Below, piece after piece: positions 3,080 to 62,480 of a DNA stretch of 64,000 nucleotides. The notes beneath the pieces were generated by a model. It saw only the letters and a program-made list of their open reading frames with translations. It was not told where the DNA came from and did not search any database. Made by a program: the position numbers and the translations under genes. This stretch comes from Aquamicrobium aerolatum DSM 21857 (lineage in GTDB: Bacteria; Pseudomonadota; Alphaproteobacteria; Rhizobiales; Rhizobiaceae), in NCBI RefSeq assembly GCF_900113935.1, contig NZ_FORF01000015.1, positions 1 through 64,000 on the forward strand, given 5' to 3'. How positions within the stretch are numbered: the stretch's first letter is position 1; every line of letters begins with the position of its first letter.

Positions 3080-3121
3080 CGTATTGACTTTGCCGGCTGT
3101 TTGCCCGAGGGTGATCGTGTC

Positions 3122-3300
3122 ATGGTTCTCTGGTCATCCTTGCGATGCGCCGGAGCTAAGAGGGAAGCCGGTGCGCGCGAATGCAATGCCGGAGCTGCCC
3201 CCGCAACTGTAAGCGGCGAGCCGAAATCCACTGATGTCACTGAGGCCTGGGCCTTGGGAAGACGGACGGAGGCTGCAACCCGCGAGCCAGGAGACCTGCC
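3122..3300 (+). promoter_or_regulatory. Cobalamin (B12) riboswitch
   Basis: The stretch contains the B12-box signature GCCCCCGCAACTGTAAGC near 3196-3213 and the upstream TAAGAGGGAAGCCGGTG element. The CACTG...GGGAAGACGG segment and CGCGAGCCAGGAGACC at the 3' side complete the pattern. The closing stem can be drawn between GGTTCTCTGG (3124-3133) and CCAGGAGACC (3287-3296). These are the hallmarks of the adenosylcobalamin-class aptamer. The expression platform must lie in 3300-3414, where GCGGGGTGTCCCG and a small CCCAA/TTGGG hairpin just before the mesX start are candidates. It should repress mesX-mesD when B12 is sufficient. Confidence 0.93.
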
Positions 3301-3414
3301 CTGACATGTAACGTCCACGGGCGGGGTGTCCCGGTGTGCCGTAGCGGAAGCCGCGTGGCGGTCTGTCTTGCTATGTGTCCGCTGATCCTTGCCCCCAACT
3401 TATTTGGGTAAGCC

Positions 3415-4461
3415 ATGTCTCAAACCGCAACTCGAATTGCCGCCCCGGTCGTGACGATCGTTGATCCCCGGCCGAGCGCGACGGGAAACGACTTCACATT
3501 CCGCCTCAAGAGGATTCGCTTTGATGAGGATTACCGCCCCTCGGAAAATACGCGCATCACGACGAATTTTGCCAATCTGGCCAGAGGTGAGAACCGGCAG
3601 GAAAACCTGCGCAATGCGTTGAAGATGATCGATAATCGTTGCAATGCACTGGCGCATTGGGACAATCCCACGAGTGATCGCTACTCGGTAGAGCTTGAAA
3701 TCATCTCCGTCGAGATGGACGTCGCTTCGGCAACGAGCGAACCCTTTCCGCTGATCGAAATGCTCAAGACGACCATCGTCGACAGGAAGACGAACCGACG
3801 CATCGACGGCATCGTCGGCAATAATTTCTCCTCTTATGTGCGCGATTACGATTTCAGCGTTGTCCTGCCTGCGTACAACAGGAACCGAACCGAATTCACC
3901 GTGCCCGACGATTTCGGTGTGCTGCATGGAAACCTGTTCAAGTGCTTCCTCGATTCCGATGTCTACAGGGAGAATTTCACCAAGCGGCCGGTCATATGCC
4001 TCAGCGCCTCGGGCAGCAGAACATACAGGCGGACGGAAAGCCGTCACCCCGTATTGGGGGTCGAATACCAGCAGGACGAATTGTCATCGACCGATCTGTA
4101 TTTCCAGAAAATGGGATTGCAGGTTCGCTATTTCATGCCCCCGGACAGCGTTGCGCCTTTCGCGTTTTACCATCTTGGAGACCTGACCGGAGACTATACC
4201 AATCTGGAACTGATCGGCACGATCAGCACGATGGAGACCTTTCAGAAGATCTATCGACCCGAGATTTACAACGCCAACTCCGTCGCGGGCGTCCACTATC
4301 AGCCCAGCCTGAAGCATCAGGACTATTCGCTGACCCGCATCGTTTATGACCGCGAAGAACGTAGCCGGCTTGCCGTCGAGCAGGGAAAATTCACGGAAGA
4401 GCGGATCATCAAACCATACAAAGCCATCTTCGAGCGCTGGGTTGGCACCAATGCCCTTTGA
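3415..4461 (+). CDS. mesX: MesX (DUF1852), partner of the folate-independent methionine synthase
   Basis: This 348-residue protein belongs to DUF1852, which is almost always encoded next to a short MetE-like protein. In the characterised pair, MesX is required together with oxygen for MesD to make methionine without B12 and without folate; its chemical role is unknown. Family-like segments are FTFRLKRIRFDEDYRPSENT, RQENLRNALKMIDNRCNALA, HWDNPTSDRYSVELEII and SVAGVHYQPSLKHQDYSLTR. There is no signal peptide and it is probably cytoplasmic. It is the first gene after the B12 riboswitch. It starts at ATG 3415 with no strong Shine-Dalgarno, so translation may be the regulated step. Its stop overlaps an ATG (4451) in the mesD frame, which suggests coupled translation. 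Confidence 0.9.
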   Translation: MSQTATRIAAPVVTIVDPRPSATGNDFTFRLKRIRFDEDYRPSENTRITTNFANLARGENRQENLRNALKMIDNRCNALAHWDNPTSDRYSVELEIISVEMDVASATSEPFPLIEMLKTTIVDRKTNRRIDGIVGNNFSSYVRDYDFSVVLPAYNRNRTEFTVPDDFGVLHGNLFKCFLDSDVYRENFTKRPVICLSASGSRTYRRTESRHPVLGVEYQQDELSSTDLYFQKMGLQVRYFMPPDSVAPFAFYHLGDLTGDYTNLELIGTISTMETFQKIYRPEIYNANSVAGVHYQPSLKHQDYSLTRIVYDREERSRLAVEQGKFTEERIIKPYKAIFERWVGTNAL

Positions 4462-4489
4462 TCAACCGAACCACACAAGGTCATCTGTC

Positions 4490-5518
4490 TTGAAAAAACT
4501 CTTGCCCACGTCAACCGCCGGCAGCCTGCCGAAGCCCTCCTGGCTCGCGGAACCGGAAAAGCTCTGGTCTCCATGGAAGCTACAGGATGAGGAACTGATC
4601 GCAGGCAAGCAGGATGCTCTGCGTCTGTCCCTCGACGATCAGCGTCAGGCAGGCATCGATATCGTCAGTGATGGCGAGCAAACGCGCCAGCATTTCGTCA
4701 CCACCTTTATCGAACATCTCGATGGCGTTGATTTCGAGAAGCGTGAAACTGTCAGAATTCGCAATCGCTATGATGCGAGCGTGCCGACGGTCGTCGGTGC
4801 GGTCTCCCGCCAAAAGCCGGTTTTTGTGGAAGATGCCAGATTTCTGCGTCAGCAGACCAGCCAGCCCATCAAATGGGCGCTGCCTGGTCCCATGACGATG
4901 ATCGATACGCTTTATGATGCGCACTATAAAAGTCGCGAGAAACTGGCCTGGGAGTTCGCCAAAGTCCTCAATGAAGAAGCGAAGGAGCTGGAGGCTGCTG
5001 GCGTCGATATCATCCAGTTCGACGAACCCGCCTTCAATGTCTTCTTCGATGAGGTGAACGACTGGGGCATCGCCACCTTGGAGCGGGCCATCGAGGGGCT
5101 CACCTGCGAAACCGCCGTCCACATCTGCTACGGCTACGGCATCAAGGCCAATACGGACTGGAAGAACACGCTGGGGTCGGAGTGGCGGCAGTACGAGGAA
5201 TCGTTCCCGAAACTGCAGCAATCCAGCATCGACCTGATCTCGCTGGAATGTCACAACTCGCATGTGCCGATCGACCTGATCGAACTCATCCGCGGCAAGA
5301 AAGTGATGGTCGGTGCCATCGATGTGGCGTCGAACACTATCGAGACCCCGGAGGAAGTCGCCGAAACCCTGCGAAAAGCGCTGAAATTCGTAAATGCAGA
5401 CAAACTCTATCCCTGCACGAATTGCGGCATGGCCCCACTGTCCCGTCAGGTAGCCACCGGCAAGCTGAAGGCCTTGAGTGCAGGCGCAGAGATCGTCCGA
5501 AAGGAACTTTCCGCGTAA
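4490..5518 (+). CDS. mesD: MesD, core-MetE-type folate-independent methionine synthase
   Basis: The product of about 342 residues corresponds only to the C-terminal catalytic half of cobalamin-independent methionine synthase and lacks the N-terminal folate-binding half of MetE. Zinc and homocysteine-site segments are visible: DIVSDGEQTRQHF, IIQFDEPAFNVF, HICYGYG, SLECHNSH and YPCTNCGMAPLSR. MesD makes methionine from homocysteine with a methyl donor that is not 5-methyl-THF. It needs MesX and oxygen. I place the start at TTG 4490, because homologues begin with the KKLLPTSTAGSLPKP segment and an AAGG lies nearby. ATG 4451, overlapping mesX, would add 13 residues. Both genes are under the riboswitch, so this is the low-B12 alternative to MetH. 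Confidence 0.9.
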   Translation: MKKLLPTSTAGSLPKPSWLAEPEKLWSPWKLQDEELIAGKQDALRLSLDDQRQAGIDIVSDGEQTRQHFVTTFIEHLDGVDFEKRETVRIRNRYDASVPTVVGAVSRQKPVFVEDARFLRQQTSQPIKWALPGPMTMIDTLYDAHYKSREKLAWEFAKVLNEEAKELEAAGVDIIQFDEPAFNVFFDEVNDWGIATLERAIEGLTCETAVHICYGYGIKANTDWKNTLGSEWRQYEESFPKLQQSSIDLISLECHNSHVPIDLIELIRGKKVMVGAIDVASNTIETPEEVAETLRKALKFVNADKLYPCTNCGMAPLSRQVATGKLKALSAGAEIVRKELSA

Positions 5519-48752: not shown

Positions 48753-48905
48753 TCAAGCCTGTCCGGCGGTCTGCCGGACGACTGGCGTCGTCTTTCTTGA
48801 TCCTGTCTCTGTCGCGGCTCGCGTGGGCCATGTCGCAAACAGGCTTCGTCCATTTCATCGGCCCGTTTATTGTCTCCCCGTACAATCGCGGAGGAGGCGT
48901 GGGAC

Positions 48906-51467
48906 ATGGCAGAATTTCCGCAGCGGGCGAGGGTGGTGGTCATTGGCCTCGGCGGCATCGTCGGCGCGTCGGTGGCGCATCACCTGATCGAGCGCGGCTG
49001 GGACGACATTGTCGGCATCGACAAGTCGGCAATCCCCACCGACATCGGTTCGACCGCCCATGCGTCGGATTTCTGTTACACCACCAGCCACGATCTGCTG
49101 TCGGTCTATACCACCCAATATTCGATCGATTTCTTTGAAAAGATGGGTCATTACGCCCGCGTCGGCGGCCTCGAAGTCGCGCGCACCGGCGACCATGCCT
49201 GGATGGAGGAGATCAAGCGCAAGCTGATGTCCGCGCGCGCCTTCGGGACCAATGCCCGCTACGTCTCGCCGGCCGAAATCAAGGCGCTGTTCCCGCTGAT
49301 TGAGGAAGACCAGGTGATGGGCGGCATGTTCGACCCCGACGCCGGGCTCGTCGTGCCGCGCTCGCAAACCGTCGCTGGCAAGCTCGTTGACGCTGCCGAG
49401 AAGACCGGCAAGCTCACCGCCTTCGCCAACACCCCGGCGCAGTCGCTGCTGGTCGAAGATGGCCGCATTGCCGGCGTCGTCACCCATCGCGGCACCATCC
49501 GCGCTGATCACGTCGTCGTCTGCACCGGCCTGTGGGGGCGGCTGATCGCCGAGATGGTCGGCGAGGACCTGCCGGTGATGCCGGTCGACCACCCGTTGAC
49601 CTTCTTCGGTCCGTTCAACGCCTTTGAAGGCACCGGCAAGGAGATCGGCTATCCGCTTTTGCGCGATCAGGGCAATTCCGCCTATATGCGCGATACCGGC
49701 GACCCCAAATCCACCGAGGGCGGCCAGCTCGAATGGGGCTATTACGAGACTGACAATCCCCGTCTCGTCCATCCGCGCGACCTGCTCGAAAAGCACGAGG
49801 CGCGGCTGTCGCCCTCGCAGCGCGACCTCGACATGGAGCAGATCCTTGAACCGCTGGAGCGCGCCATCGAGCTGACGCCGATCCTCGGCGAGATCGGCTA
49901 CAACGAAAGCCATTCCTTCAACGGTCTGTTGCAGGCGTCGGCCGCCGGCGGCGCGTCCTGCGGCGAAAGCCAGAAGGTGCGCGGCCTGTGGTATTGCGTC
50001 GGCATCTGGGTCAAGGATGGCCCCGGCTACGGCAAGCTCATCGCCGACTGGATGACCGACGGGCGCACCGAAGTCGACCATAACGGCATCGACTATGCCC
50101 GTTTCTATCCGCATCAATTGCAGGAAGATTTCATCGAAAATCGCGGCGGCGAGGCGGCGCGCAAAATCTACTACCCGGCGATCCACCCGCGCGAACCCTA
50201 TGCGACCAGCCGCAACATCAAGCGTTCGCCGTTCTACGATCGCGAGGTCGAGTTGGGCGGCTACTTCATGGAACTCGGCGGCTGGGAGCGCGCCCACGGC
50301 TATGCCGCCAACGAGCATCTGCTTGAAAAATACGCCGACCGCGTCCCGGTGCGCGAAAACGAATGGGACAGCCGCCATTTCTGGCGCGTCTCCAACGCTG
50401 AACATCTGGCGATGAGCGAGGATTGCGGCATCGTCAATCTGTCGCATTTCTTCATCTTCGATGTCGAAGGCCCCGACCACGTCGCGCTGATGGAATGGCT
50501 GTGTGCGGCCAAAATCGGCGGCGACGCCAATATCGGCAAGGGCATCTACACCCACTTCCTCGACCAGGAAGGCATGGTGCGCGCCGATCTGACCGTCATC
50601 CGCATGGCAGACCGCTGTCGCATCATCGACGGCGCCGACGCCGGGCCGCGCGATTTCCACTATGTCCGCCGCGTCGCGCAGGACAAGGGCTTTGACGTCA
50701 CCGTCACCGATGTGTCGGAGCAAAACGTCACCATCGGCATCTGGGGACCCAACGCCCGCGCCACGCTGAAAAAGGTCGTCGCCGACCCCGCCGCGCTTGA
50801 GCCGGACAACTTCCCCTTCGCCGCGATCCGCCCGATCGAGATTGCCGGCAAAATGGTCACTGCCTTCCGCATTTCCTATGTCGGCGAGCAGGGCTGGGAA
50901 CTGCATATGGCCTATGATGACGGCCTTGCCGTCTGGGATGCGTTGCGCAGCACCGGCGTGATGGCGTTCGGCGTCGAGACCTACGCCAATTCGCGCCGCA
51001 TGGAAAAAAGCCTGCGCCTGCAAAACGCCGACCTGCTCACCCAGTACAATCTGCTCGAAGCCGATCTGGCGCGCCCCAAGGTCAAGGACGCCGATTTCCG
51101 CGGCAAGCAGCAACACCTCGCCTACCGCGCCCGCGAACACCAACCGGCGATGCTGTGCACGCTCGTCCTCACCGACACCACGGACGCAAACGGCGTGGTG
51201 CGCTACCCTGTCGGCATCATGCCGGTGATCGACCCCGCCACCGGTGCGGTTCTGGTCGACGAACTCGGCCGCCGCTCCTACACCACCTCGGTCGCCTACG
51301 GCCCGACGCTCGGCAAAAACATCGCGCTCGCCTACATTCCGTGGAGCCATTGCCAGCCGGGCCGGGTGCTGTCGGTCGACTATTTCGGCGAAACCTTCCC
51401 CGCCGAAATCGCCGCCGTTGGCTACCAACCGCTCTATGACCCGGAGAACACGAAGCCGCGCAGCTGA
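48906..51467 (+). CDS. FAD-dependent dimethylglycine/sarcosine-dehydrogenase-like enzyme with GcvT domains
   Basis: The protein of about 853 residues has an N-terminal DAO-type FAD domain (VVVIGLGGIVGASVAHHLIE). The flavin-attachment region GSTAHASDFCYTTSHDLLS keeps the histidine but replaces the usual WHAAG by AHASD. A FAO_M middle segment is followed by a GcvT aminomethyltransferase part from about 440 (CGIVNLSHFFIFDVEGPDHV, FRISYVGEQGWELHMAYDDG) and a GcvT C-terminal barrel. Relatives oxidise N-methyl groups of dimethylglycine or sarcosine and can hand the C1 unit to tetrahydrofolate. The start ATG 48906 follows GGAGGAGG. A full-length antisense frame is an artefact of its codon usage. It is probably part of the corrinoid methyltransferase system downstream. 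Confidence 0.85.
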   Translation: MAEFPQRARVVVIGLGGIVGASVAHHLIERGWDDIVGIDKSAIPTDIGSTAHASDFCYTTSHDLLSVYTTQYSIDFFEKMGHYARVGGLEVARTGDHAWMEEIKRKLMSARAFGTNARYVSPAEIKALFPLIEEDQVMGGMFDPDAGLVVPRSQTVAGKLVDAAEKTGKLTAFANTPAQSLLVEDGRIAGVVTHRGTIRADHVVVCTGLWGRLIAEMVGEDLPVMPVDHPLTFFGPFNAFEGTGKEIGYPLLRDQGNSAYMRDTGDPKSTEGGQLEWGYYETDNPRLVHPRDLLEKHEARLSPSQRDLDMEQILEPLERAIELTPILGEIGYNESHSFNGLLQASAAGGASCGESQKVRGLWYCVGIWVKDGPGYGKLIADWMTDGRTEVDHNGIDYARFYPHQLQEDFIENRGGEAARKIYYPAIHPREPYATSRNIKRSPFYDREVELGGYFMELGGWERAHGYAANEHLLEKYADRVPVRENEWDSRHFWRVSNAEHLAMSEDCGIVNLSHFFIFDVEGPDHVALMEWLCAAKIGGDANIGKGIYTHFLDQEGMVRADLTVIRMADRCRIIDGADAGPRDFHYVRRVAQDKGFDVTVTDVSEQNVTIGIWGPNARATLKKVVADPAALEPDNFPFAAIRPIEIAGKMVTAFRISYVGEQGWELHMAYDDGLAVWDALRSTGVMAFGVETYANSRRMEKSLRLQNADLLTQYNLLEADLARPKVKDADFRGKQQHLAYRAREHQPAMLCTLVLTDTTDANGVVRYPVGIMPVIDPATGAVLVDELGRRSYTTSVAYGPTLGKNIALAYIPWSHCQPGRVLSVDYFGETFPAEIAAVGYQPLYDPENTKPRS

Positions 51468-51509
51468 AGTTTTCCACATTGCGTAGAATCGAGGGGAAGC
51501 GGAAAAGTT

Positions 51510-52502
51510 CTATGCTGCCAGCTTTCGATCGGCACGTTCCTGCTGCGGTGAGCGGGCGTAGAGTTCGCGGTAGCATTTCGAAAAATGCGAAGCGGAAACA
51601 AAACCGCATGCAACCGCTACTTCGACTACTGGCAATGTCGACTGAATCAGAAGATGCCGCGCGCGATCCAGCCGGATTTCCAGATAGTAGCGTGCAGGCG
51701 AGCGACCCATTTCCTGGCGGAACAGCCGCTCAATCTGCCGTCGCGAAAGCCCCACGTGGTCGGCAATTTCGATCAACGAAAGGGGCTCTGCAAGGTGAGC
51801 CTCCATCAGTTCGATAATGGTCAGGATTTTCGAATTCTGCACGCCAAGCCGTGCGCGCAGAGGCAGGCGCTGTCTGTCGGTTGGGCTGCGTACGCGGTCG
51901 GTCAGTACCTGTTCACATACGCGATTGACCAGGTTGTCGTCGAAATCATCGCCAATCAGCTTCAGCATCATGTCAAGAGCTGCCGTGCCGCCGGCGCAGG
52001 TGTAGATGTTGCCATCAACCTCAAAAAGATCGGCGTAGACGTTAGCTTTTGGAAAAGTTTCCGAAAAACCTGGGAGGTTCTCCCAGTGAATGGCGCATCT
52101 TCTGCCGGATAGCAGTCCTGCCTGAGCCAGCACATGCGCCCCTGTGCACAGGCCGCCTATCGCAACGCCGCGATTATACTCTTCGCGCAGCCAGGCAAAC
52201 ACGGTGCGTTGGCTGTATTTCTCGACGTTTAAACCAGAGCAGACGATCACCATGGATGGGCGGTCTTGCCCAGCCATCTTGCGCCGCTCCTCTTCGAGTG
52301 ACGTGTTGGCGGCGCATTCGACCCGATTTGAGGCATATACCGGCTTCCCGTCCACGCTTGCGATACGCCAATGATAGGCCTCGTAGCCGAGCATCCGGTT
52401 TGCCGCGCGCAACGGTTCGAGCGCGGTCGCGAACGCAATCATGGTGAAGTCGGGTATCAGGAAGAAAACGATCGAGCGTTTGACGTTCTTGGATGGGGTC
52501 AC
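51510..52502 (-). CDS. GlxA-family AraC regulator (DJ-1/PfpI plus HTH)
   Basis: This 330-residue protein has an N-terminal class I glutamine-amidotransferase-like sensor domain (about 10-190: VFFLIPDFTMIAFATALEPL, GGLCTGAHVLAQAGLLSGRR, CAGGTAALDMMLKLIGDD). The C-terminal AraC domain (about 225-320) has LSLIEIADHVGLSRRQIERL and VVEVAVACGFVSASHFSKCY. This is the class of GbdR/CdhR regulators that control glycine betaine and carnitine catabolism. It is convergent with the dehydrogenase-like gene, its plausible target. The inducer is unknown. Confidence 0.88.
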   Translation of the reverse strand: MTPSKNVKRSIVFFLIPDFTMIAFATALEPLRAANRMLGYEAYHWRIASVDGKPVYASNRVECAANTSLEEERRKMAGQDRPSMVIVCSGLNVEKYSQRTVFAWLREEYNRGVAIGGLCTGAHVLAQAGLLSGRRCAIHWENLPGFSETFPKANVYADLFEVDGNIYTCAGGTAALDMMLKLIGDDFDDNLVNRVCEQVLTDRVRSPTDRQRLPLRARLGVQNSKILTIIELMEAHLAEPLSLIEIADHVGLSRRQIERLFRQEMGRSPARYYLEIRLDRARHLLIQSTLPVVEVAVACGFVSASHFSKCYRELYARSPQQERADRKLAA

Positions 52503-54830: not shown

Positions 54831-56891
54831 TCAAGTGCGGCTGCGCCGTGCCGCGCGATCCTCGCGCGAGCGGCGGCGCTGGGCGGCGCTGTCTGTCCCG
54901 TCGCCGGCATCCTGCTCGATCTGGCGCGGCGGCAGCGTCACCTGCTGCGCCAGAAACGGGAACGGATCGACCTTGTTGGGCAGCGCCATCGCATTGATGA
55001 AGATTCTCTGGAAATTCGGCTCCAGCGCGGTCTCGATCTTTTCGATGTGGGTGACCGTGTCCTCGATCTCGCGACGATGGTCGCGGTTGAGCAGCGCCAT
55101 CAGCGCGCCGTGCCCAGCGGCATTGCCGACCGCCTTGACCTTGTCGAGGTCGCAATCGGGGATCAGCCCCAGCACCATCGCATAGGTCGGGTCGATGAAG
55201 GTGCCGAACGCGCCGGCCAGGCTGATCCGGTCGACATGGTCGATGCCGAGCTTTTCCATCAACAGCTTGATCCCGGCATAAAGCGCCGCCTTGCCGAGCT
55301 GGATCGCGCGTACGTCGTTTTGCGTCACAGTGATGCGCGGCGTGCCGTCATGCAGCAGATACGACCAGGTGCGGCCGTTCTGCAGGATGCGCGGCGTCTT
55401 GTCGGCCAGCGCGCCGTCGATCACGCCGTCCTCGGAAATCACCCCCGACAAATACATTTCCGCGATCACTTCGATGATCGCCGAGCCGCAAATGCCGGTG
55501 ACGCCCAATTGGGCTGAGGCTTCGGCAAAACCGTCCTCGTCCGACCATGTGTCGACGCCGATGATCTTGAAGCGCGGTTCCAGTGTGTCCTTGTCGATGC
55601 GCACGCGCTCGATTGCGCCGGGCGCGGCGCGCTGGCCCGACGAGATTTCCGCGCCCTCGAAGGCCGGGCCGGTTGGCGACGACGCCGCCACCACCCGGTC
55701 GCGGTTGCCAAGCACGATCTCGGCGTTGGTGCCGACATCGACCACCATCATCATCTCGTCCTGCCGGTGCGGTCCCTCGCACAACGCTGCCGCCGCCGAA
55801 TCCGCGCCGACATGTCCCGCGATGCACGGCAGCAGATAGACGCGCGCGCCCGCATTGGCGCTCAAGTCCAGCGTCGAAGCCGGCACATCGACCGCGCCGG
55901 ACACTGCCAGCGCAAACGGTGCCTGTCCCAGCTCCGTCGGGTCGATGCCGAGGAACAGATGGTGCATGATCGGATTGCCGACAAACACCATGTCGAGAAT
56001 GTCGTCGCGCGCCACGTCGCCCTCGGCGCAGACTTTTCCAATCAGCTCGTTGGCGGCTTCGCGCACCGCCGTCGTCATCGCCTCCCGGCCGTTGGGGTTC
56101 ATCATCACATAGGAGACGCGGCTCATCAGATCTTCGCCGAAGCGGATTTGCGGGTTTGACGCGCCCGACGAAGCCACGATCCGCCCCGACAACAGCGACA
56201 CCAGATGCATCGCAATCGTCGTTGAACCAATATCGCAGGCGATGCCATAGGCTTCGTTGTGCAGCCCCGGCCACAGCGCGATGATCGTCGGCCGCGCGGT
56301 CGGTCCGTCGCGATGGATCGCCGCCGTCACGCCCCATTCGCCCTTGCGGAGGATTTTTTGCACCTCGTGCAGCAGATGCGGCGCGACCTGCAGATCGTGA
56401 TAGTGCCAGTCCTGTTCCAGCATCTTCTTGAGCCGGTCGAGATCGCCGAGCGGCTTGTGCATGTCGGGCTCGTCCAGCTCGACATAGCACAATTGCACCG
56501 CCGGATTGCGCTCGATCACCCGGTCGAGCGCCGCCTTGCGGACCACCTGCGCGTTGATGACGGTATCCTGCGGCACGTCGATGACGAGATCACCCTCGAT
56601 GGTGCTCGAACACGACAGCCGCCGCCCATCCGCCAGCCCGCGCACCCGCTCATAGCGCTCTTCCTTCGCGCCCCGGGCCGACAGATGGTCGTTGGCCGAG
56701 GTGATGCCGTGCTTTGCGAAATTTCCCTCCTGCACGATGACCTGGCACCGCCCGCAGGTCGCGCGCCCCCCGCAGACGCTCTCGACATAAACGCCCAACT
56801 CCCGCGCCGCATCCAGCACGACGGTCCCCTTGGCAAACCGCCCCCGTTTGCCCGACGGCATGAACAAAACAAGCGGATCGGTGGTGGCCAT
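54831..56891 (-). CDS. RACo-like corrinoid reactivation protein (2Fe-2S plus ASKHA ATPase, DUF4445)
   Basis: The protein of about 686 residues has an N-terminal plant-type 2Fe-2S domain with ligands in VESVCGGRATCGRCQVIV and a fourth cysteine in RRLSCSSTIEGDL. A linker region (about 100-205) and an ASKHA-fold DUF4445 region follow (GIACDIGSTTIAMHLVSLLS, MMVVDVGTNAEIVLGNRDRV, RISLAGAFGTFIDPTYAMVL). Such proteins use ATP to reduce inactive Co(II) corrinoid back to Co(I), an essential repair step for methyltransferases, above all in the presence of oxygen. The start ATG 56891 (MATTDPLVLFMPSG) is chosen because homology begins there. It is 13 bases after the methyltransferase gene. Confidence 0.9.
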   Translation of the reverse strand: MATTDPLVLFMPSGKRGRFAKGTVVLDAARELGVYVESVCGGRATCGRCQVIVQEGNFAKHGITSANDHLSARGAKEERYERVRGLADGRRLSCSSTIEGDLVIDVPQDTVINAQVVRKAALDRVIERNPAVQLCYVELDEPDMHKPLGDLDRLKKMLEQDWHYHDLQVAPHLLHEVQKILRKGEWGVTAAIHRDGPTARPTIIALWPGLHNEAYGIACDIGSTTIAMHLVSLLSGRIVASSGASNPQIRFGEDLMSRVSYVMMNPNGREAMTTAVREAANELIGKVCAEGDVARDDILDMVFVGNPIMHHLFLGIDPTELGQAPFALAVSGAVDVPASTLDLSANAGARVYLLPCIAGHVGADSAAAALCEGPHRQDEMMMVVDVGTNAEIVLGNRDRVVAASSPTGPAFEGAEISSGQRAAPGAIERVRIDKDTLEPRFKIIGVDTWSDEDGFAEASAQLGVTGICGSAIIEVIAEMYLSGVISEDGVIDGALADKTPRILQNGRTWSYLLHDGTPRITVTQNDVRAIQLGKAALYAGIKLLMEKLGIDHVDRISLAGAFGTFIDPTYAMVLGLIPDCDLDKVKAVGNAAGHGALMALLNRDHRREIEDTVTHIEKIETALEPNFQRIFINAMALPNKVDPFPFLAQQVTLPPRQIEQDAGDGTDSAAQRRRSREDRAARRSRT

Positions 56892-56904
56892 CTGTCGTGC
56901 GTCC

Positions 56905-57855
56905 TTAAGCCTTCGCCATCCGTGCCTCGCGACCGCCACGCCGGCGGGTGGGGGCGGCGTCGTTGGCGACGGGGGCAGGGGCGGCGTGTTCGCCCGGCTT
57001 GAAATCCTTGTAGGTCTTGATCCATGTCGTGCAGTCGCGATCTGTTCCAGCCAGCACGTTGGCGCCGCGCACGGCTTCCATCTCCTGCGGGCGGCAGGGG
57101 TTCATGATCGCGCTGGTCATGCCGGCGCCGATCACCATCGGGATGAAGGCGGCGTTGATGCCGTGGCGATGCGGCAGGCCGAACGAGATGTTGGACAGCC
57201 CGCACGTGGTGTTGACCTTCAGCTCCTCGCGCAACCGGCGCAGCAGCGCGAACACTTGGCGGCCGGCATCGCCGAGCGCGCCGATCGGCATCACCAGCGG
57301 GTCGACCACCACGTCTTCCGGCTTGATGCCGTGATCCATTGCCCGCTCGACGATCTTTTTCGCCACCGCAAAGCGCACGTCCGGGTCCATCGAAATGCCG
57401 CTCTCATCGTTGGAGATCGCCACCACCGGCACGTCGTATTTCTTTACCAGCGGCAGGATCGCCTCGAGTTTCTCCTCTTCGCCGGTTACCGAATTGACCA
57501 GCGGCCGGCCCTTGGCGACGCGCAAGCCCGCCTCGATTGCCGCCGTCACCGACGAGTCGATCGATAGCGGTACGTCGACCAGGCTTTGGACGATTTCCAG
57601 CGTTTGCACCATCAGCCCCGGTTCTGTGGCGTTGGGGTCGACGGCGGTGACGCCGGCATTGACGTCGAGCATCGTCGCGCCCGCCAGCACCTGTTCGAGC
57701 GCGTCCTTGCGCACAGTGTCGAAATTGCCGGCGATCATCTCGGCGGCGAGTTTCTTGCGCCCGGTCGGGTTGATGCGCTCGCCGATGACGCAAAATGGCT
57801 GGTCGAAGCCGATGACGATTTCCCGGGTCGCGGAGGCGACAATGGTGCGGGTCAT
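56905..57855 (-). CDS. Methyltetrahydrofolate:corrinoid methyltransferase (pterin-binding, MtgA/AcsE type)
   Basis: The TIM-barrel protein of about 316 residues shows the pterin-binding pattern: CVIGERINPTGRKKLAAEMI, ATMLDVNAGVTAVDPN, PLSIDSSVTAAIEAG, NSVTGEEEKLEAI, ISNDESGISMDPDVRF and TTCGLSNISFGLPHRHGIN. It moves a methyl group between a corrinoid protein and tetrahydrofolate. Here, in concert with the MttB-like enzyme, it would make 5-methyl-THF. It has no homocysteine or B12 domain, so it is not MetH. The last about 35 residues are an Ala/Arg-rich tail. The start is ATG 57855; the longer frame upstream belongs to the neighbouring gene's antisense composition. Confidence 0.9.
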   Translation of the reverse strand: MTRTIVASATREIVIGFDQPFCVIGERINPTGRKKLAAEMIAGNFDTVRKDALEQVLAGATMLDVNAGVTAVDPNATEPGLMVQTLEIVQSLVDVPLSIDSSVTAAIEAGLRVAKGRPLVNSVTGEEEKLEAILPLVKKYDVPVVAISNDESGISMDPDVRFAVAKKIVERAMDHGIKPEDVVVDPLVMPIGALGDAGRQVFALLRRLREELKVNTTCGLSNISFGLPHRHGINAAFIPMVIGAGMTSAIMNPCRPQEMEAVRGANVLAGTDRDCTTWIKTYKDFKPGEHAAPAPVANDAAPTRRRGGREARMAKA

Positions 57856-57883
57856 GGAGATGTCCTCGTTGAAACGGTCGGGG

Positions 57884-58189
57884 TCAGGAATGGACGTGGT
57901 GGCCGCCGGCCTTGACCAGCGCCACAAGCGTGTCGCGGTCGAATTGCGCGTCGAGCGCGGCGGCGGCCTTGTCGGCTTCGGCTTCGAGATCGTCGGAGAC
58001 GGGCACCGGCTCGGCCTTGCGCCATTCGGCCAGATAGGCGTCGGTGTCGCCCGCGCCGGTGCGCATCGCGCACATGTCGATGGCTTCGGTAAAGCGCAGC
58101 GGCAATTCGCGTTTGGCGTTCTGCCGGCCTTTCTTGACAATCACTTGCGCGGGAATATCCCGCCAGTAGACGACGATCAGATCTGCCAT
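57884..58189 (-). CDS. PF13769 'virulence factor' family protein, small
   Basis: This 101-residue protein has the pattern MADLIVVYWRDIPAQVIVKK, RQNAKRELPLRFTEAIDMCA and EAEADKAAAALDAQFDRDTL. The family name is historical and no biochemical role is established. Its genes often stand next to MttB-like methyltransferases, and here it is encoded 28 bases before the methyltetrahydrofolate:corrinoid methyltransferase gene. A chaperone, corrinoid-loading or assembly role is a guess from context. Confidence 0.8.
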   Translation of the reverse strand: MADLIVVYWRDIPAQVIVKKGRQNAKRELPLRFTEAIDMCAMRTGAGDTDAYLAEWRKAEPVPVSDDLEAEADKAAAALDAQFDRDTLVALVKAGGHHVHS

Positions 58190-58287
58190 CTGTTTCCTTC
58201 CTCACTCAGAAGACAGGATTGCCGAAGGGCGGGCAGGCAAGCTGTTTGGCCCACGACGCGCGCACCCTCAATTGCGACGTGGGCGTC

Positions 58288-58899
58288 TCACTTCAACTTG
58301 CCGAGATCGCGCTGCAGATCGCCATAGCCGGTGAAACGCTTTTCATAGCCGAGCCCGAGCAGGACGGCGGCGTCCTTGGCGACCTGTTCCAGCGCCGGAT
58401 CTTCGGTCTGGGCGAGATAGATGACCTTCTCATAATTGCCGAAGAAATCCGTGATCAGCTCCGGGTGGCGATCCAGTCCCAATGGCTTGATGAAGAAGGC
58501 ATCGAATTGGCGGCACAGAAAGTCGGTCATGTAAAACGACATCATGTCGCCATCGGCGACTTTCGCAAACGCCGCTTCGCCCTGATAGAACGCGAAGCAA
58601 TGCGGCCCGGCCATGCGCGCGACGCCGTGTTTTTCGCACACCACGTCGAGATGGCCGCCGGTGCCGCAATCGGCATAGCCGACAAAAATATGCTGATAGC
58701 CCTCGGCCTTAGCCTTTTCGATCGCCGCATCCATCGCCGGGGCGATCTTGTCGGGGCGGTAGTGAAATTCCGCCGGCAGGCAGGTCAGCTCCAGATGGTC
58801 GAAGCCGAGCCGCTCCTTCACCGCCAGTACCTCGCGTGCGATCATCCCACAGGCGATCACGAGAACTTTTTCCGCGTTCGTGCGTTGAGCGTTCGTCAC
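58288..58899 (-). CDS. DUF1638 protein of the corrinoid methyltransferase cluster
   Basis: This 203-residue soluble protein of family DUF1638 contains KVLVIACGMIAREVLAVKER, LELTCLPAEFHYRPDKIAPA, HIFVGYADCGTGGHLDVVCE and RMAGPHCFAFYQGEAAFAKV. Conserved cysteines (ACGM, TCLP, DCGT, HCFAF) and histidines could bind a metal or cofactor. The family occurs mainly beside corrinoid methyltransferases, in methanogens and in proteobacteria; its role is unknown. It is the first gene of the minus-strand run DUF1638, PF13769, methyltransferase, RACo and hydrolase. Confidence 0.85.
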   Translation of the reverse strand: MTNAQRTNAEKVLVIACGMIAREVLAVKERLGFDHLELTCLPAEFHYRPDKIAPAMDAAIEKAKAEGYQHIFVGYADCGTGGHLDVVCEKHGVARMAGPHCFAFYQGEAAFAKVADGDMMSFYMTDFLCRQFDAFFIKPLGLDRHPELITDFFGNYEKVIYLAQTEDPALEQVAKDAAVLLGLGYEKRFTGYGDLQRDLGKLK

Positions 58900-58942
58900 C
58901 AGTTACGCGCCCCCTTGGCGCGTCATGATGCGGAGAGCCAAG

Positions 58943-59101
58943 ATGACATCCAGTATGTTTACCAGAGTTGCAGCCATCGTTCTCGTCACTGCTTTTGCGG
59001 CGGGGTGCGCAAACACCATTCGCGGTGCCGGTCGCGATACTGCCAACGCCGTTCAGGCGACACAAGACGCTGGTCGAAGCGTGGAACGTGCCGCTAACTA
59101 A
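58943..59101 (+). CDS. Entericidin-like small lipoprotein
   Basis: A 52-residue frame, ATG 58943 to TAA 59101, begins MTSSMFTRVAAIVLVTAFAA, then has lipobox AAGC and a short tail NTIRGAGRDTANAVQATQDA ending GRSVERAAN. This is the EcnA/EcnB pattern of small outer-membrane lipoproteins. A CGGAGAG ribosome site precedes it. It lies on the opposite strand between two genes of the corrinoid system. Entericidin B is linked to stress-induced lysis in enterobacteria; whether that holds here is unknown. Confidence 0.8.
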   Translation: MTSSMFTRVAAIVLVTAFAAGCANTIRGAGRDTANAVQATQDAGRSVERAAN

Positions 59102-59149
59102 CCACTCGCCGGCAAGCTCTTGCGTAACGCATGACGCGATGTCCGTGTC

Positions 59150-59848
59150 TCACGCCGAGGCGCGGACGTTGTGCCTGCGTTTCATGAAATCCTTCGCCGT
59201 CTCCACCGCAACGGCTGCATCGCGGCAGTAGGCGTCTGCGCCCACGGCCTTGCCGAATTCCTCGTTGAGCGGCGCACCGCCGACCATCACGACGAAATCG
59301 TCGCGAATGCCCTTTTCCTTCATCGTGTCGATCACGACCTTCATATAGGGCATCGTTGTCGTCAGCAGCGCTGACATGCCGACAATATCCGGCTTGTGTT
59401 CTTCAATTGCCGCGAGGTATTTTTCGACCGGATTGTTGATGCCGAGGTCGATCACGTCGAAGCCGGCGCCTTCCATCATCATGCCGACAAGGTTCTTGCC
59501 GATGTCGTGAATGTCGCCCTTGACGGTGCCGATCACCAGCTTGCCCTGCTTGGGCGCGCCGGTGGCGGCCAGCAGCGGGCGCAGGATGAACATGCCGGCC
59601 TTCATGGCATTGGCCGACAGCAACACTTCCGGCACGAACAGGATGCCGTCGCGAAAATCCTCGCCGACGATGCGCATGCCCTCAACCAGCGCCTCAGTGA
59701 GAACCTTGTATGGGAGCCAGCCGCGGTCGAGCAGGATCTGCGTGCCTTCCTCGATCTCCTCCTTCAACCCGTCATAGAGGTCGTCGTGCATCTGCTGGAC
59801 GAGTTCGTCGTCGGAAAGCTCGGAAAGGATGATTTCATCGTCAGACAT
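59150..59848 (-). CDS. Methyltransferase cognate corrinoid protein (MtgC/MtbC type)
   Basis: This 232-residue two-domain protein has an N-terminal four-helix cap (about 10-95: SDDELVQQMHDDLYDGLKEE, LVEGMRIVGEDFRDGILFVP). A Rossmann-like B12 domain follows with TVKGDIHDIGKNLVGMMMEG (the DxHxxG cobalt-ligand histidine), DIVGMSALLTTTMPYMK and VVMVGGAPLNEEFGKAVGAD. It carries the methyl group between the MttB-like enzyme and the THF methyltransferase. It is divergent from the MttB-like gene across about 230 bases. The DUF1638 operon starts further downstream on the same strand, with the entericidin gene in between. Confidence 0.93.
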   Translation of the reverse strand: MSDDEIILSELSDDELVQQMHDDLYDGLKEEIEEGTQILLDRGWLPYKVLTEALVEGMRIVGEDFRDGILFVPEVLLSANAMKAGMFILRPLLAATGAPKQGKLVIGTVKGDIHDIGKNLVGMMMEGAGFDVIDLGINNPVEKYLAAIEEHKPDIVGMSALLTTTMPYMKVVIDTMKEKGIRDDFVVMVGGAPLNEEFGKAVGADAYCRDAAVAVETAKDFMKRRHNVRASA

Positions 59849-60077
59849 GTTTGGCTCCCGAAAGCAGCAGACATAGCCGCTGCCTTGTTGTTCTGTCGGA
59901 ATCTTAGCTGTGACAAGAACGATTGCTTGGCTGATTTGCGACGTCCCGCGCCGGGAAAGCGACTGCGTTATCTGTCGATTTTGCGACAGGCTCTGACGCG
60001 GAGTGGCCGTTTTTATGGCGCGTCCGGCCTACGATCCTAGTCAACCAAACATGGGCCTGCGCAGACGGGGAACGGCT

Positions 60078-61637
60078 ATGGAAGACCAGACAGACGGTGG
60101 TGGACGGCGAGGGCGCGGCGAACGTGGTGGTGCGGCGGCGCGACGTGCGGCGCGCACCGGCGGTGGTGCGGGGCTGCAACTGACCTATATCAAGCGCGAA
60201 GTTCCGGTCTACAACGTGCTCAACGAGGAAGGCTTGGCGCTGATCGAGGCCAATGCCGACACCGTGCTGGAGGAAACCGGCATCGAGTTTCGCGACGACG
60301 CCGAAGCGCTGGCGCTGTGGAAGGATGCCGGGGCCGATGTGCGCGGCGAGCGCGTCCATTTCCCCAAGGGGCTGCCGCGGTCGCTGCTGAAGACCGCGCC
60401 GTCCGTCTTCACCCAGCATGCGCGCAATCCGGCCCGCTCGGTGCAGATCGGCGGCGACGCCACCGTGTTTGCGCCGGTCTACGGCCCGCCCTTCGTGCGC
60501 GATCTCGACGGCAACCGCCGCTATGCCACCATCGAGGACTTTCGCAATTTCGTGAAGCTCGCCTATATGGCGCCGTCGATCCACCATTCGGGCGGCACCG
60601 TCTGCGAGCCGGTCGACGTGCCGGTCAACAAGCGCCATCTCGACATGGTGCTGGCCCACATCACGTTGTCCGACAAGCCGTTCATGGGCTCGGTCACCGC
60701 GCCCGAACGCGCCGAGGATTCGGTGGCGATGGCGAAAATCCTGTTTGGCGACGAGTTCGTCGACCAGAACACCGTGCTCATCAATCTCATCAACGCCAAC
60801 TCGCCGATGGTGTTCGACGAAACCATGCTCGGCGCGGCCAAGGTCTATGCCCGCGCCAATCAGGCCACCATCATCACCCCGTTCATCCTTGCCGGCGCGA
60901 TGAGCCCGGTGACGGTCGCTGGCACGCTGACGCAGGTGCTCGCTGAAGTCCTTGCAGGCGCGGCGTTTACCCAGCTGATCCGTCCCGGCGCGCCGGTGCT
61001 GTTTGGCACCTTCGCCTCGTCGATCTCGATGCAGTCGGGCGCGCCAACTTTCGGTACCCCGGAACCGTCGCTGGTGTCCTATGGGGCAGGGCAGCTCGCC
61101 CGCCGTCTCGGCCTGCCGTTCCGCACCGGAGGCTCCTTGTGCGCTTCAAAGATCCCGGATGCGCAGGCGGCTTATGAAAGCGCCAACACGCTGAATTCGA
61201 CCATGCTCGCCGGCACCAATTTCGTCCTCCACGCCGCCGGCTGGCTCGAAGGCGGGCTGGCCTCCTGCTACGAAAAATTCATGATGGACATCGACCAACT
61301 CGGCATGGCGCAGCGCTTTGCCGCCGGTGTCGACCTATCGGAAAACGGTCAGGCGATGGACGCGATCCGGGAAGTTGGCCCCGGCAGCCATTTCCTCGGC
61401 TGCGCCCACACTCAGGCCAATTTCCAGTCGGCGTTCTACCGTTCGACGGTCGCAGACAACAATTCCTTCGAGCAATGGCAGGCAGAAGGCCAGCAGCGGG
61501 TCGAAACACGCGCTAACGCGTTGGCACGCAACTGGCTTGATTCCTACGAGGCCCCGCCGCTCGACCCCGGCATCCGCGATGGCCTCAATGATTTCGTCGC
61601 GCGCAAGAAGGAATCGATGCCCGACGCGTTCACCTGA
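60078..61637 (+). CDS. MttB-superfamily methylamine/betaine:corrinoid methyltransferase without pyrrolysine
   Basis: This TIM-barrel protein of about 519 residues belongs to the trimethylamine methyltransferase superfamily. Typical segments are VPVYNVLNEEGLALIEANAD, VLEETGIEFRDDAEALALWK, PVDVPVNKRHLDMVLAHITL, AFTQLIRPGAPVLFGTFASS and GCAHTQANFQSAFYRSTVAD. True MttB needs an in-frame amber codon read as pyrrolysine. Here the frame is uninterrupted, as in MtgB (glycine betaine) and related enzymes for quaternary amines. It would move a methyl group from such an amine to the corrinoid protein encoded divergently. ATG 60078 follows GGGGAA; a longer GTG frame from 60003 exists. A glycine- and arginine-rich leader of about 30 residues precedes the fold. 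Confidence 0.92.
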   Translation: MEDQTDGGGRRGRGERGGAAARRAARTGGGAGLQLTYIKREVPVYNVLNEEGLALIEANADTVLEETGIEFRDDAEALALWKDAGADVRGERVHFPKGLPRSLLKTAPSVFTQHARNPARSVQIGGDATVFAPVYGPPFVRDLDGNRRYATIEDFRNFVKLAYMAPSIHHSGGTVCEPVDVPVNKRHLDMVLAHITLSDKPFMGSVTAPERAEDSVAMAKILFGDEFVDQNTVLINLINANSPMVFDETMLGAAKVYARANQATIITPFILAGAMSPVTVAGTLTQVLAEVLAGAAFTQLIRPGAPVLFGTFASSISMQSGAPTFGTPEPSLVSYGAGQLARRLGLPFRTGGSLCASKIPDAQAAYESANTLNSTMLAGTNFVLHAAGWLEGGLASCYEKFMMDIDQLGMAQRFAAGVDLSENGQAMDAIREVGPGSHFLGCAHTQANFQSAFYRSTVADNNSFEQWQAEGQQRVETRANALARNWLDSYEAPPLDPGIRDGLNDFVARKKESMPDAFT

Positions 61638-61805: not shown

Positions 61806-62480
61806 GTGCCCAACCTGATCTCTCAAATCGACGACGCGTTAACGGCATGCGGCCTTATGGTCCGCGGTGCGGTTGCCTTGTCGTCCGAGGATCACGCGCC
61901 TAACGGGCCTTTGGGCATGCCGGCACGGTCGGTGGTTCTCGTCGGCCACGGTGGCGCGGATTACTGGCCGCATTTTGAGCGGTGGCGCTCCACCCAGACT
62001 CAGGATTTGGCTAATCCGCTCGACGCATGGTCGCGGTCGGTTCTGGAAGAGGTTGCGTCGCTGGTGGGTGCCCGTGCCCTTCTGCCAAACGACCGGCCGT
62101 ATGCGCCGTTTCAGCAATGGGCAATCCGTGCCGAACGGCTACGTCCGTCTCCGATTGGATTGCTGATTCATCCGGTCTACGGTCTGTGGCATGCGTTCCG
62201 CGGCGCGTTGTTGTTCGATGCTGAGATCGAGATTCAACAAGCTGAACAATTGAATCATCCGTGCGCCGTATGTGTCGAAAAACCTTGCATGAATGCCTGC
62301 CCGGTAGATGCATTCAGCGCAGCTGGTTTCGCCTATGAGCGATGCCTGGCATATGTGCGCGGGCCGGAGGGACAGCATTGCACCGGGTGTCAGGCGAGGA
62401 ACGCTTGTCCGATTGGTATAGAGTACCGATACCCCGCATCGGTGCAGACATTCCATCAGGCGGCGTTTGCAGGGTTGTGA
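61806..62480 (+). CDS. 4Fe-4S protein related to epoxyqueuosine reductase-type ferredoxins
   Basis: This 224-residue protein has two 4Fe-4S-type cysteine motifs at the C-terminus, CAVCVEKPCMNACPVDAF and CTGCQARNACPIG. An N-terminal domain of unknown fold has VVLVGHGGADYWPHFERWRS and SPIGLLIHPVYGLWHAFRGA. The layout recalls the QueG/RdhA group, where a cobalamin-binding domain precedes ferredoxin clusters, but full similarity is not evident. The start is GTG 61806. It lies 168 bases downstream of the MttB-like gene on the same strand and could donate electrons to the corrinoid system; that is only context. Confidence 0.7.
   Translation: MPNLISQIDDALTACGLMVRGAVALSSEDHAPNGPLGMPARSVVLVGHGGADYWPHFERWRSTQTQDLANPLDAWSRSVLEEVASLVGARALLPNDRPYAPFQQWAIRAERLRPSPIGLLIHPVYGLWHAFRGALLFDAEIEIQQAEQLNHPCAVCVEKPCMNACPVDAFSAAGFAYERCLAYVRGPEGQHCTGCQARNACPIGIEYRYPASVQTFHQAAFAGL

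What the first reader, a model, noticed from the sequence alone, without database searches (positions are those of the whole stretch)
54831..61637. Corrinoid-dependent methyltransferase system in a probable aerobe, substrate unknown
The divergent MttB-like gene and corrinoid protein gene, plus the minus-strand run DUF1638, PF13769, methyl-THF:corrinoid methyltransferase and RACo-like reactivase, form a complete methyl-transfer chain: amine methyl to cobalt to tetrahydrofolate, with ATP-driven repair of oxidised cobalt. Each core component is recognised from sequence motifs. Such chains are best known from anaerobes; here the surrounding genes (pobA, protocatechuate dioxygenase) need oxygen. 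The MttB frame has no amber codon, so it is of the MtgB class acting on quaternary amines. Which amine, and how Co(I) survives in air, is open.
Basis: partly seen in the sequence, partly recalled or inferred. Interest (0 to 1): 0.88.

Follow-up and report, generated by a model that had tools for sequence, protein, structure and literature searches.

The report
Oxygen-tolerant B12-dependent betaine demethylation cluster
A rhizobium-like bacterium carries the vitamin B12-dependent gene set that other oxygen-using bacteria use to strip a methyl group from the osmolyte glycine betaine; the set is already described, but it has a neighbour that looks like the human B12-processing protein and may be an overlooked part.

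Summary
The genes are there as described: MttB-family methyltransferase and corrinoid protein divergently arranged, then DUF1638, PF13769, methyl-THF:corrinoid methyltransferase and a RACo-like activase. The question posed is largely answered in print: aerobic Ruegeria pomeroyi needs MtgC and MtgD of such a set to demethylate glycine betaine (PMC12478193), and Phaeobacter uses the C, D and activation parts as a split methionine synthase (PMC5764234). Our locus fits: the set recurs in most of 80 related loci, a dimethylglycine oxidase-type gene and a GbdR-like regulator lie 2-6 kb beyond its edge, it holds the only MttB found in the genome, and MtgB matches glycine betaine methyltransferase structures (E about 1e-124). 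The substrate in this organism is inferred. Two additions I did not meet in the text read: PF13769, labelled a virulence factor, occurs in 37 of 193 alphaproteobacterial genomes, all 37 with an MttB; and the gene after mtgB (61806-62480), present in 75 of 80 loci, is predicted to fold like human MMACHC/CblC, with eight invariant cysteines, suggesting a B12 reductase or loader. That second link is weak outside close kin. Verdict: new member of a known kind, with one open, testable extra part.

The parts
54831..56939 (-). RACo/RamA-like ATP-driven corrinoid activase with N-terminal [2Fe-2S] ferredoxin (probable start near 56891, inferred from relatives)
   Evidence: Pfam RACo_C_ter 298.1, Raco_middle 165.8, RACo_linker 95.3, Fer2 28 bits; Cys 56, 62, 65, 110
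56905..57855 (-). MtgD: methyl-tetrahydrofolate:corrinoid methyltransferase
   Evidence: Pterin_bind 96.1 bits; NF005719 391.9 bits, cut-off 259; ATG at 57855
57884..58189 (-). PF13769 ('Virulence_fact') protein, function unknown, here tied to the corrinoid system
   Evidence: 92.2 bits; all 37 PF13769-bearing genomes of 193 also have MTTB
58288..58899 (-). DUF1638 protein, probable helper of cobalamin reactivation
   Evidence: 79 bits; 36 of 37 DUF1638 genomes also have PF13769; fitness link published (PMC5764234)
59150..59848 (-). MtgC: corrinoid-binding protein
   Evidence: B12-binding and B12-binding_2; DIHDIG at 112
60003..61637 (+). MtgB: non-pyrrolysine MttB-family methyltransferase, probably glycine betaine:corrinoid (probable start 60078)
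   Evidence: MTTB 778.5 bits; PDB 4yyc E 3e-286, 2qne E 1.9e-124, 9yce 'Glycine betaine methyltransferase' E 6e-124
61806..62480 (+). CblC(MMACHC)/QueG-like protein with eight invariant Cys (two [4Fe-4S] inferred); candidate cobalamin reductase or loader
   Evidence: in 75 of 80 loci, within 700 bp of the mtgB match in 67 of those 75; model pLDDT 91.2; all 29 PDB fold hits at E<=0.001 are MMACHC/CblC or QueG
48870..51467 (+). N,N-dimethylglycine oxidase/dehydrogenase-type flavoenzyme (probable next step of the pathway)
   Evidence: PDB 1pj5 E 8.1e-105; DAO + GCV_T domains
51510..52502 (-). GbdR-like AraC-family regulator (choline/betaine catabolism)
   Evidence: NF052371 360.4 bits, below cut-off 480, best of its matches

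Best explanation
This is the aerobic alphaproteobacterial MtgBCD glycine betaine demethylase with its cobalamin-reactivation genes. MtgB moves one methyl of glycine betaine onto Co(I) of MtgC, giving dimethylglycine; MtgD moves it from methyl-cobalt to tetrahydrofolate. When Co(I) is oxidised to Co(II), the RACo-like protein rebuilds Co(I) using ATP and an electron from its [2Fe-2S] domain, helped in an unknown way by DUF1638 and, I infer, PF13769. Dimethylglycine is then demethylated by the flavoenzyme at 48870. MtgC can probably also serve homocysteine methylation through an MtgE (BHMT-like) protein coded on another contig, but the organism also has a complete MetH. Shown here: gene content, families, synteny, co-occurrence. 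Shown elsewhere (Ruegeria): need of mtgC and mtgD for betaine use. Inferred: substrate here, direction, and the roles of PF13769 and of the CblC-like neighbour.
For: Families and positions. MtgB closest to the structure 4yyc (recalled to be S. meliloti) and to 2qne and 9yce, glycine betaine methyltransferases (2qne so named in PMC9842639). One PF06253 gene found in the genome. Cluster conserved in related loci, nearly all named as Hyphomicrobiales (the order is recalled taxonomy). Dimethylglycine oxidase-type gene and GbdR-like regulator at 48870-52502; in class member L118 the whole set lies with GbdR-like (42%) and DMGDH-like (27%) genes within 18 kb, and in L120 mtgB is beside a DMGDH-like gene (24%). 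MtgE-type gene in the genome. The best GbcB match in the genome and the oxygenase beside it score below the GbcB and GbcA cut-offs (385.7 of 500; 492 of 670), and that oxygenase matches 4qup and 3vca (E about 1e-229; recalled to be proline betaine/stachydrine demethylases), so this pair more likely handles proline betaine. Published genetics: PMC12478193, PMC5764234.
Against: No experiment on this organism or on a Hyphomicrobiales MtgB that I saw. The paper tested mtgC and mtgD mutants; I saw no mtgB mutant in the Results and Discussion. The MtgE-type protein scores over the cut-off of a model named betaine--homocysteine S-methyltransferase (551.1 of 338); PMC12478193 argues that such S. meliloti-type proteins lack betaine-binding residues, but I did not check those residues here, so a direct Bhmt route is not excluded. 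The metF-type gene that sits between PF13769 and mtgD in most relatives is missing here (3 of 72 sequences with mtgD lack it, the window included); a diverged MetF-like gene is elsewhere, next to a LigM-like demethylase gene. GbdR- and DMGDH-like genes are found near the cluster in only 5 and 9 of 80 loci within the 10-kb flanks held, and the 9 DMGDH matches are 23-25% identical. The Rieske pair could still act on betaine; I did not search the whole genome for GbcA.
Confidence: 0.8

Rival explanations
1. Same chemistry, different methylated substrate (for example proline betaine, carnitine, choline or another betaine), glycine betaine being handled by the Rieske pair or by a true Bhmt.
For: MttB-family members differ in substrate (MtpB, MtcB, MtyB, MthB; named in PMC12478193); many class members carry several paralogues (10 of the 39 genomes with a match reach 7, which is the most that one search scored per genome). 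The genome has a Rieske pair that scores against GbcA/GbcB and a protein that passes a model named betaine--homocysteine S-methyltransferase.
Against: Single MttB copy found here, best named relatives are glycine betaine enzymes, and betaine-pathway genes lie close by. The Rieske oxygenase stays below its GbcA cut-off and matches 4qup/3vca strongly.
Confidence: 0.13
2. The cluster mainly runs as a split methionine synthase (methyl-THF to MtgC to homocysteine through MtgE), with demethylation secondary.
For: MtgC, MtgD, activase and DUF1638 are needed for methionine synthesis in Phaeobacter (PMC5764234); an MtgE-type gene is present; the metF-type gene is absent from the cluster.
Against: The genome has a 1281-aa MetH frame with activation domain and a MesX/MesD-type pair behind a cobalamin riboswitch, so methionine has other routes. 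mtgB is in all 80 loci, but they were fetched by mtgB, so this counts little.
Confidence: 0.07

Closest known systems
MtgBCD glycine betaine demethylase / split methionine synthase of Ruegeria pomeroyi (Mausz et al. 2025, PMC12478193)
   Same: Same families: MtgB, MtgC, MtgD, RamA-like, DUF1638; aerobic alphaproteobacterium; MtgE in the genome; dimethylglycine-step gene present
   Different: Here the parts are clustered (the paper says they are not in Ruegeria); one MttB found instead of several; a complete MetH is also present; metF-type gene missing from the cluster; CblC-like gene follows mtgB (not mentioned in the text read; figures not held)
Split methionine synthase with RamA-like and DUF1638 proteins of Phaeobacter inhibens (Price et al. 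2018, PMC5764234)
   Same: MtgC, MtgD, ferredoxin-DUF4445 activase and DUF1638
   Different: Here mtgB is part of the cluster and methionine has other synthases
MtgB/MtgA/MtgC of Desulfitobacterium hafniense (Ticak et al. 2014, not read; recalled and as cited in the papers read)
   Same: Non-pyrrolysine MttB-family enzyme plus corrinoid protein plus methyl-THF transferase
   Different: Anaerobe; MtgC of a different lineage according to PMC12478193; NCBIfam MtgC models not reached by our MtgC (215.7 of 370, 179.6 of 310)
MMACHC/CblC and QueG (for the neighbour 61806-62480)
   Same: Predicted fold (29 of 29 hits at E<=0.001) and a short GxxxHPxxGxWxxxRG motif shared with MMACHC (chain positions 147-162)
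   Different: Sequence scores far below family cut-offs (PF16690 16.1 of 27; TIGR00276 20.5 of 200); shorter than QueG; the eight invariant Cys are not in MMACHC as far as I recall

Membership tests
Aerobic MtgBCD glycine betaine demethylase | PF06253 methyltransferase without pyrrolysine codon | tested here: met
   778.5 bits, open frame without amber
Aerobic MtgBCD glycine betaine demethylase | Stand-alone corrinoid protein MtgC (PF02607+PF02310, DxHxxG) | tested here: met
Aerobic MtgBCD glycine betaine demethylase | Stand-alone pterin-binding MtgD | tested here: met
Aerobic MtgBCD glycine betaine demethylase | RamA/RACo-like activase and DUF1638 | tested here: met
Aerobic MtgBCD glycine betaine demethylase | MtgE (PF02574, BHMT-like) in the genome | tested here: met
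   G000:C28, 225.2 bits to PF02574, 551.1 bits to NF005718
Aerobic MtgBCD glycine betaine demethylase | Paralogous metF2 with mtgD (accompanying gene in Ruegeria, not a part of the enzyme) | tested here: not met
   Absent between PF13769 and mtgD; diverged MetF-like gene on another contig
Aerobic MtgBCD glycine betaine demethylase | Glycine betaine is the methyl donor | not testable with these tools
   needs growth or enzyme assays
Pyrrolysine MttB (trimethylamine methyltransferase) | In-frame amber/pyrrolysine codon and TIGR02369 score over 525 | tested here: not met
   no stop inside; 270.4 bits
GbcAB glycine betaine monooxygenase (rival route in the genome) | GbcA and GbcB scores over cut-off | tested here: not met
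   492 of 670 and 385.7 of 500 for the C26 pair; GbcB searched in the whole genome, GbcA not
True Bhmt (rival route in the genome) | Betaine-binding residues of human BHMT in the C28 protein | not tested
   model named betaine--homocysteine S-methyltransferase passed; residues not examined
MMACHC/CblC (neighbour gene) | PF16690 score over 27 | tested here: not met
   16.1 bits
MMACHC/CblC (neighbour gene) | CblC fold | tested here: met
   predicted model against PDB, TM-scores of the CblC hits at E<=0.001 0.51-0.60 by query length, E down to 3.5e-7; prediction only
MMACHC/CblC (neighbour gene) | Binds and reduces or dealkylates cobalamin | not testable with these tools
   needs purified protein
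QueG epoxyqueuosine reductase (neighbour gene) | TIGR00276 score over 200 | tested here: not met
   20.5 bits

The most novel reading that the evidence does not exclude
The gene after mtgB encodes a bacterial CblC-like iron-sulfur protein that loads cobalamin onto MtgC or reduces its Co(II), i.e. a third, so far undescribed activation component beside RACo and DUF1638; and PF13769, misnamed a virulence factor, is a dedicated part of the aerobic corrinoid methyltransferase system. Together these would be the answer to how Co(I) is kept usable in air. (Lowered from 0.3 to 0.25 after a recount, showed that the CblC-like gene is seldom next to the other parts outside close kin.)
Probability: 0.25. 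Interest if true: 0.65.

Novelty: new member of a known kind. Interest (0 to 1): 0.4.

Why it matters
PMC12478193 presents MtgBCD as a major route of N-osmolyte demethylation in the ocean; this locus is a compact version in a rhizobium-like bacterium. What would be new is a defined helper set for keeping a super-reduced cobalt working in air: in the 193 class genomes sampled, PF13769 is never found without an MttB-family gene, and the CblC-like neighbour would tie a bacterial catabolic enzyme to the protein family behind the human cblC disorder. Both are single-gene tests.

Tried and rejected
Pyrrolysine MttB: rejected (no amber codon, TIGR02369 below cut-off). GbcAB as the genome's betaine route: the C26 pair scores below both cut-offs and its oxygenase matches 4qup/3vca; not fully excluded. 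First impression that the genome has one MTHFR only: corrected, a diverged MetF-like gene is on C33. DUF1638 fold: confident model (pLDDT 91.0) but no PDB match at E<=0.001; the best-ranked match has TM 0.22, the highest among the 50 shown is 0.49 (1b73, glutamate racemase, E 0.013); its mechanism stays open. PF13769: no PDB sequence match at E<=1. RNA families at gathering scores: a cobalamin riboswitch and a tRNA in the window, neither at the cluster. Literature: the word PF13769 is in 0 papers of the held library (the Pfam name itself was not searched); DUF1638 in 3; five phrases for bacterial CblC-like proteins gave 2 papers, both about animal cobalamin disorders by title and abstract; a search for MMACHC with QueG gave 116 papers, 15 listed, none opened. 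These cover only the open-licence PMC library.
Full report
Observation. The MttB-like frame has no amber codon. Its 544-aa reading probably starts too early; relatives point to M26, ATG at 60078. The corrinoid protein has the DxHxxG motif at residue 112, and the activase has a CX5CX2C plus C110 pattern (that these mean cobalt binding and a [2Fe-2S] ferredoxin is recalled). pobA and protocatechuate dioxygenase near by are real, so the host very likely uses oxygen.

Host. The window lies in a 3.64-Mb genome of 49 contigs, estimated 100% complete. The nearest MtgB proteins (up to 91% identity) come from records named Aquamicrobium, Aliihoeflea, Rhizobiaceae, Mesorhizobium and Aminobacter, so the host is probably of the Phyllobacteriaceae/Rhizobiaceae; this rests on one protein.

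Neighbourhood in relatives. Of the 80: MtgC 77, DUF1638 75, CblC-like gene 75, PF13769 71, MtgD 71, RACo 68, MtgE within the flanks 59. Of the 67 loci of more than 21 kb, in the same order: 67, 67, 62, 66, 66, 65 and 54. Most relatives carry a methylene-THF reductase-type gene between PF13769 and mtgD, of one of two kinds (55 and 15 of 80). The window lacks both; of 72 sequences with mtgD (window included) only 3 lack them, the others being L046 and L070. A diverged MetF-like protein, 44% identical to one of the two kinds, is coded on contig C33 beside a LigM-like vanillate/3-O-methylgallate demethylase gene and a catechol 2,3-dioxygenase gene; the ordinary metF is on C26.

What it does. The closest solved structures are 4yyc (E 3e-286; recalled to be S. 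meliloti), 2qne (E 1.9e-124) and 9yce, deposited as glycine betaine methyltransferase (E 6e-124); 2qne is named as the glycine betaine methyltransferase MtgB in PMC9842639 (passages). One MttB-family gene was found in the genome. A dimethylglycine oxidase-type gene (1pj5, E 8.1e-105) and a GbdR-like regulator (360 bits, cut-off 480) lie 3.4-6.0 and 2.3-3.3 kb from the edge of the cluster. The genome also has an MtgE/BHMT-type gene on C28, which passes a model named betaine--homocysteine S-methyltransferase (551 bits, cut-off 338), and a MetH frame of 1281 aa with the activation domain on C12. PMC12478193 argues that the S. meliloti homologue of this BHMT-type gene is MtgE and not a true Bhmt; I did not test that here. 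A Rieske pair on C26 scores below the GbcA and GbcB cut-offs and its oxygenase best matches 4qup and 3vca, which I recall as proline betaine demethylases. So glycine betaine is the most likely substrate, with the methyl going to THF.

What is known. PMC12478193 (abstract, Results and Discussion read; passages elsewhere; figures not held) reports that in aerobic Ruegeria pomeroyi mtgC and mtgD are needed both for methionine synthesis and for glycine betaine growth, that two PF06253 proteins, a RamA-like protein (SPO2041) and DUF1638 (SPO2162) rise on N-osmolytes, and that S. meliloti has the set together with the cobalamin operon. [quoted passage not shown] PMC5764234 (passages) showed by mutant fitness that the three synthase parts, the RamA-like protein and DUF1638 work together in Phaeobacter, with no specific proposal for DUF1638. 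The finding is therefore a new member of a described system.

What may be new. (a) PF13769. In 193 genomes drawn evenly from the class (the same 193 in each search), DUF1638 occurs in 37, PF13769 in 37, MTTB in 39. DUF1638 and PF13769 share 36; all 37 PF13769 genomes have MTTB, and the two MTTB genomes without PF13769 have only distant matches (best E 2e-76 and 8.6e-78). DUF1638 and PF13769 lie within 1 kb in 25 of the 36. Fisher values (2e-34 or smaller for these three pairs) ignore kinship between genomes. The word PF13769 is in no paper of the library; synteny may be drawn in figures I could not see. PF13769 also occurs in Bacillus subtilis, one of 14 control genomes, which has no MTTB match, so the domain is not confined to this system outside the class.

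(b) The gene after mtgB, 61806-62480. It is on the same strand, follows within 700 bp in 67 of the 75 loci that have it, and has eight invariant cysteines (153, 156, 161, 165, 180, 192, 195, 201) in 47 aligned sequences. Its sequence is only weakly like known families (PF16690 MMACHC 16.1 bits, cut-off 27, for the window's protein; no MMACHC match for the two relatives scanned with it). A short stretch aligns with human MMACHC chain positions 147-168 (E 0.24 at best, not significant alone), putting its invariant Gly118 and Arg132 at 147 and 161, sites of the variants G147D and R161Q named in papers found (search listing only). The predicted structure is confident (pLDDT 91.2, pTM 0.88), and all 29 PDB matches at E<=0.001 are MMACHC/CblC or QueG, with reductive dehalogenases next; all are cobalamin proteins (recalled). 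TM-scores are moderate (0.50-0.60), with large rmsd. In the 193 genomes 38 have a strong match: 30 of the 37 DUF1638 genomes and 8 of the 156 others (at most 15 candidates per genome were scored, so misses are possible; 7 weak matches dropped). Against a strict link: 7 DUF1638 genomes lack it; of the 30 that have both, only 4 (the window's genome, G088, G093, G167) have it within 5 kb of DUF1638, and G025 and G123 have it within 5 kb of a listed MttB gene (one search's list is cut short); in 7 of the 8 genomes without DUF1638, fetched, no other cluster gene was found beside it, apart from a 22% GbdR-like match in one. In favour: G093 has it with DUF1638 and an MtgC-like gene but no MttB. It evolves faster than its neighbours (median 55% identity against 94% for MtgC). 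I read it as a cobalamin-handling iron-sulfur protein with a wider role that has been drawn next to mtgB in Hyphomicrobiales, either an electron donor/Co(II) reductase or a loader for MtgC; this is inference, and I lowered its odds.

Score. The core is known, so interest is moderate; the two additions give it a clear, cheap next test.

Noticed in passing
window 3106-5518 (+): A cobalamin riboswitch (124.9 bits) stands directly before MesX (594.5 bits) and a core methionine synthase of MesD type (NF006589 708.1 bits; MesD by its MesX neighbour): apparently a B12-independent, oxygen-dependent methionine synthase switched on when B12 is short, in a genome that also has MetH and the MtgCDE parts. 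Function of MesX/MesD from PMC7857596 (passages), whose main text has no 'cobalamin riboswitch'.
   Followed up: partly
G000:C33, L106:6436-10994: LigM-like vanillate/3-O-methylgallate O-demethylase (645.7 bits, cut-off 580), diverged MetF-like protein, DUF1932 protein and catechol 2,3-dioxygenase (332 bits, cut-off 320.2) in a row: a probable THF-dependent aromatic demethylation cluster.
   Followed up: partly
G000:C26, L091:3053-8538: Old-yellow-enzyme-type protein, LysR-like regulator and Rieske oxygenase/reductase pair close to 4qup/3vca: probable proline betaine demethylation locus (regulator by eye).
   Followed up: partly
L070 (Chelativorans sp. J32): Cluster with RACo, MtgD, DUF1638, MtgC, MtgB but without a match to PF13769, the CblC-like gene or the metF-type genes.
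   Followed up: no
L114 (G093:C32): DUF1638, MtgC-like (47%) and CblC-like genes together in a genome without PF06253 or PF13769 matches: possibly only the methionine-synthase side of the system.
   Followed up: no
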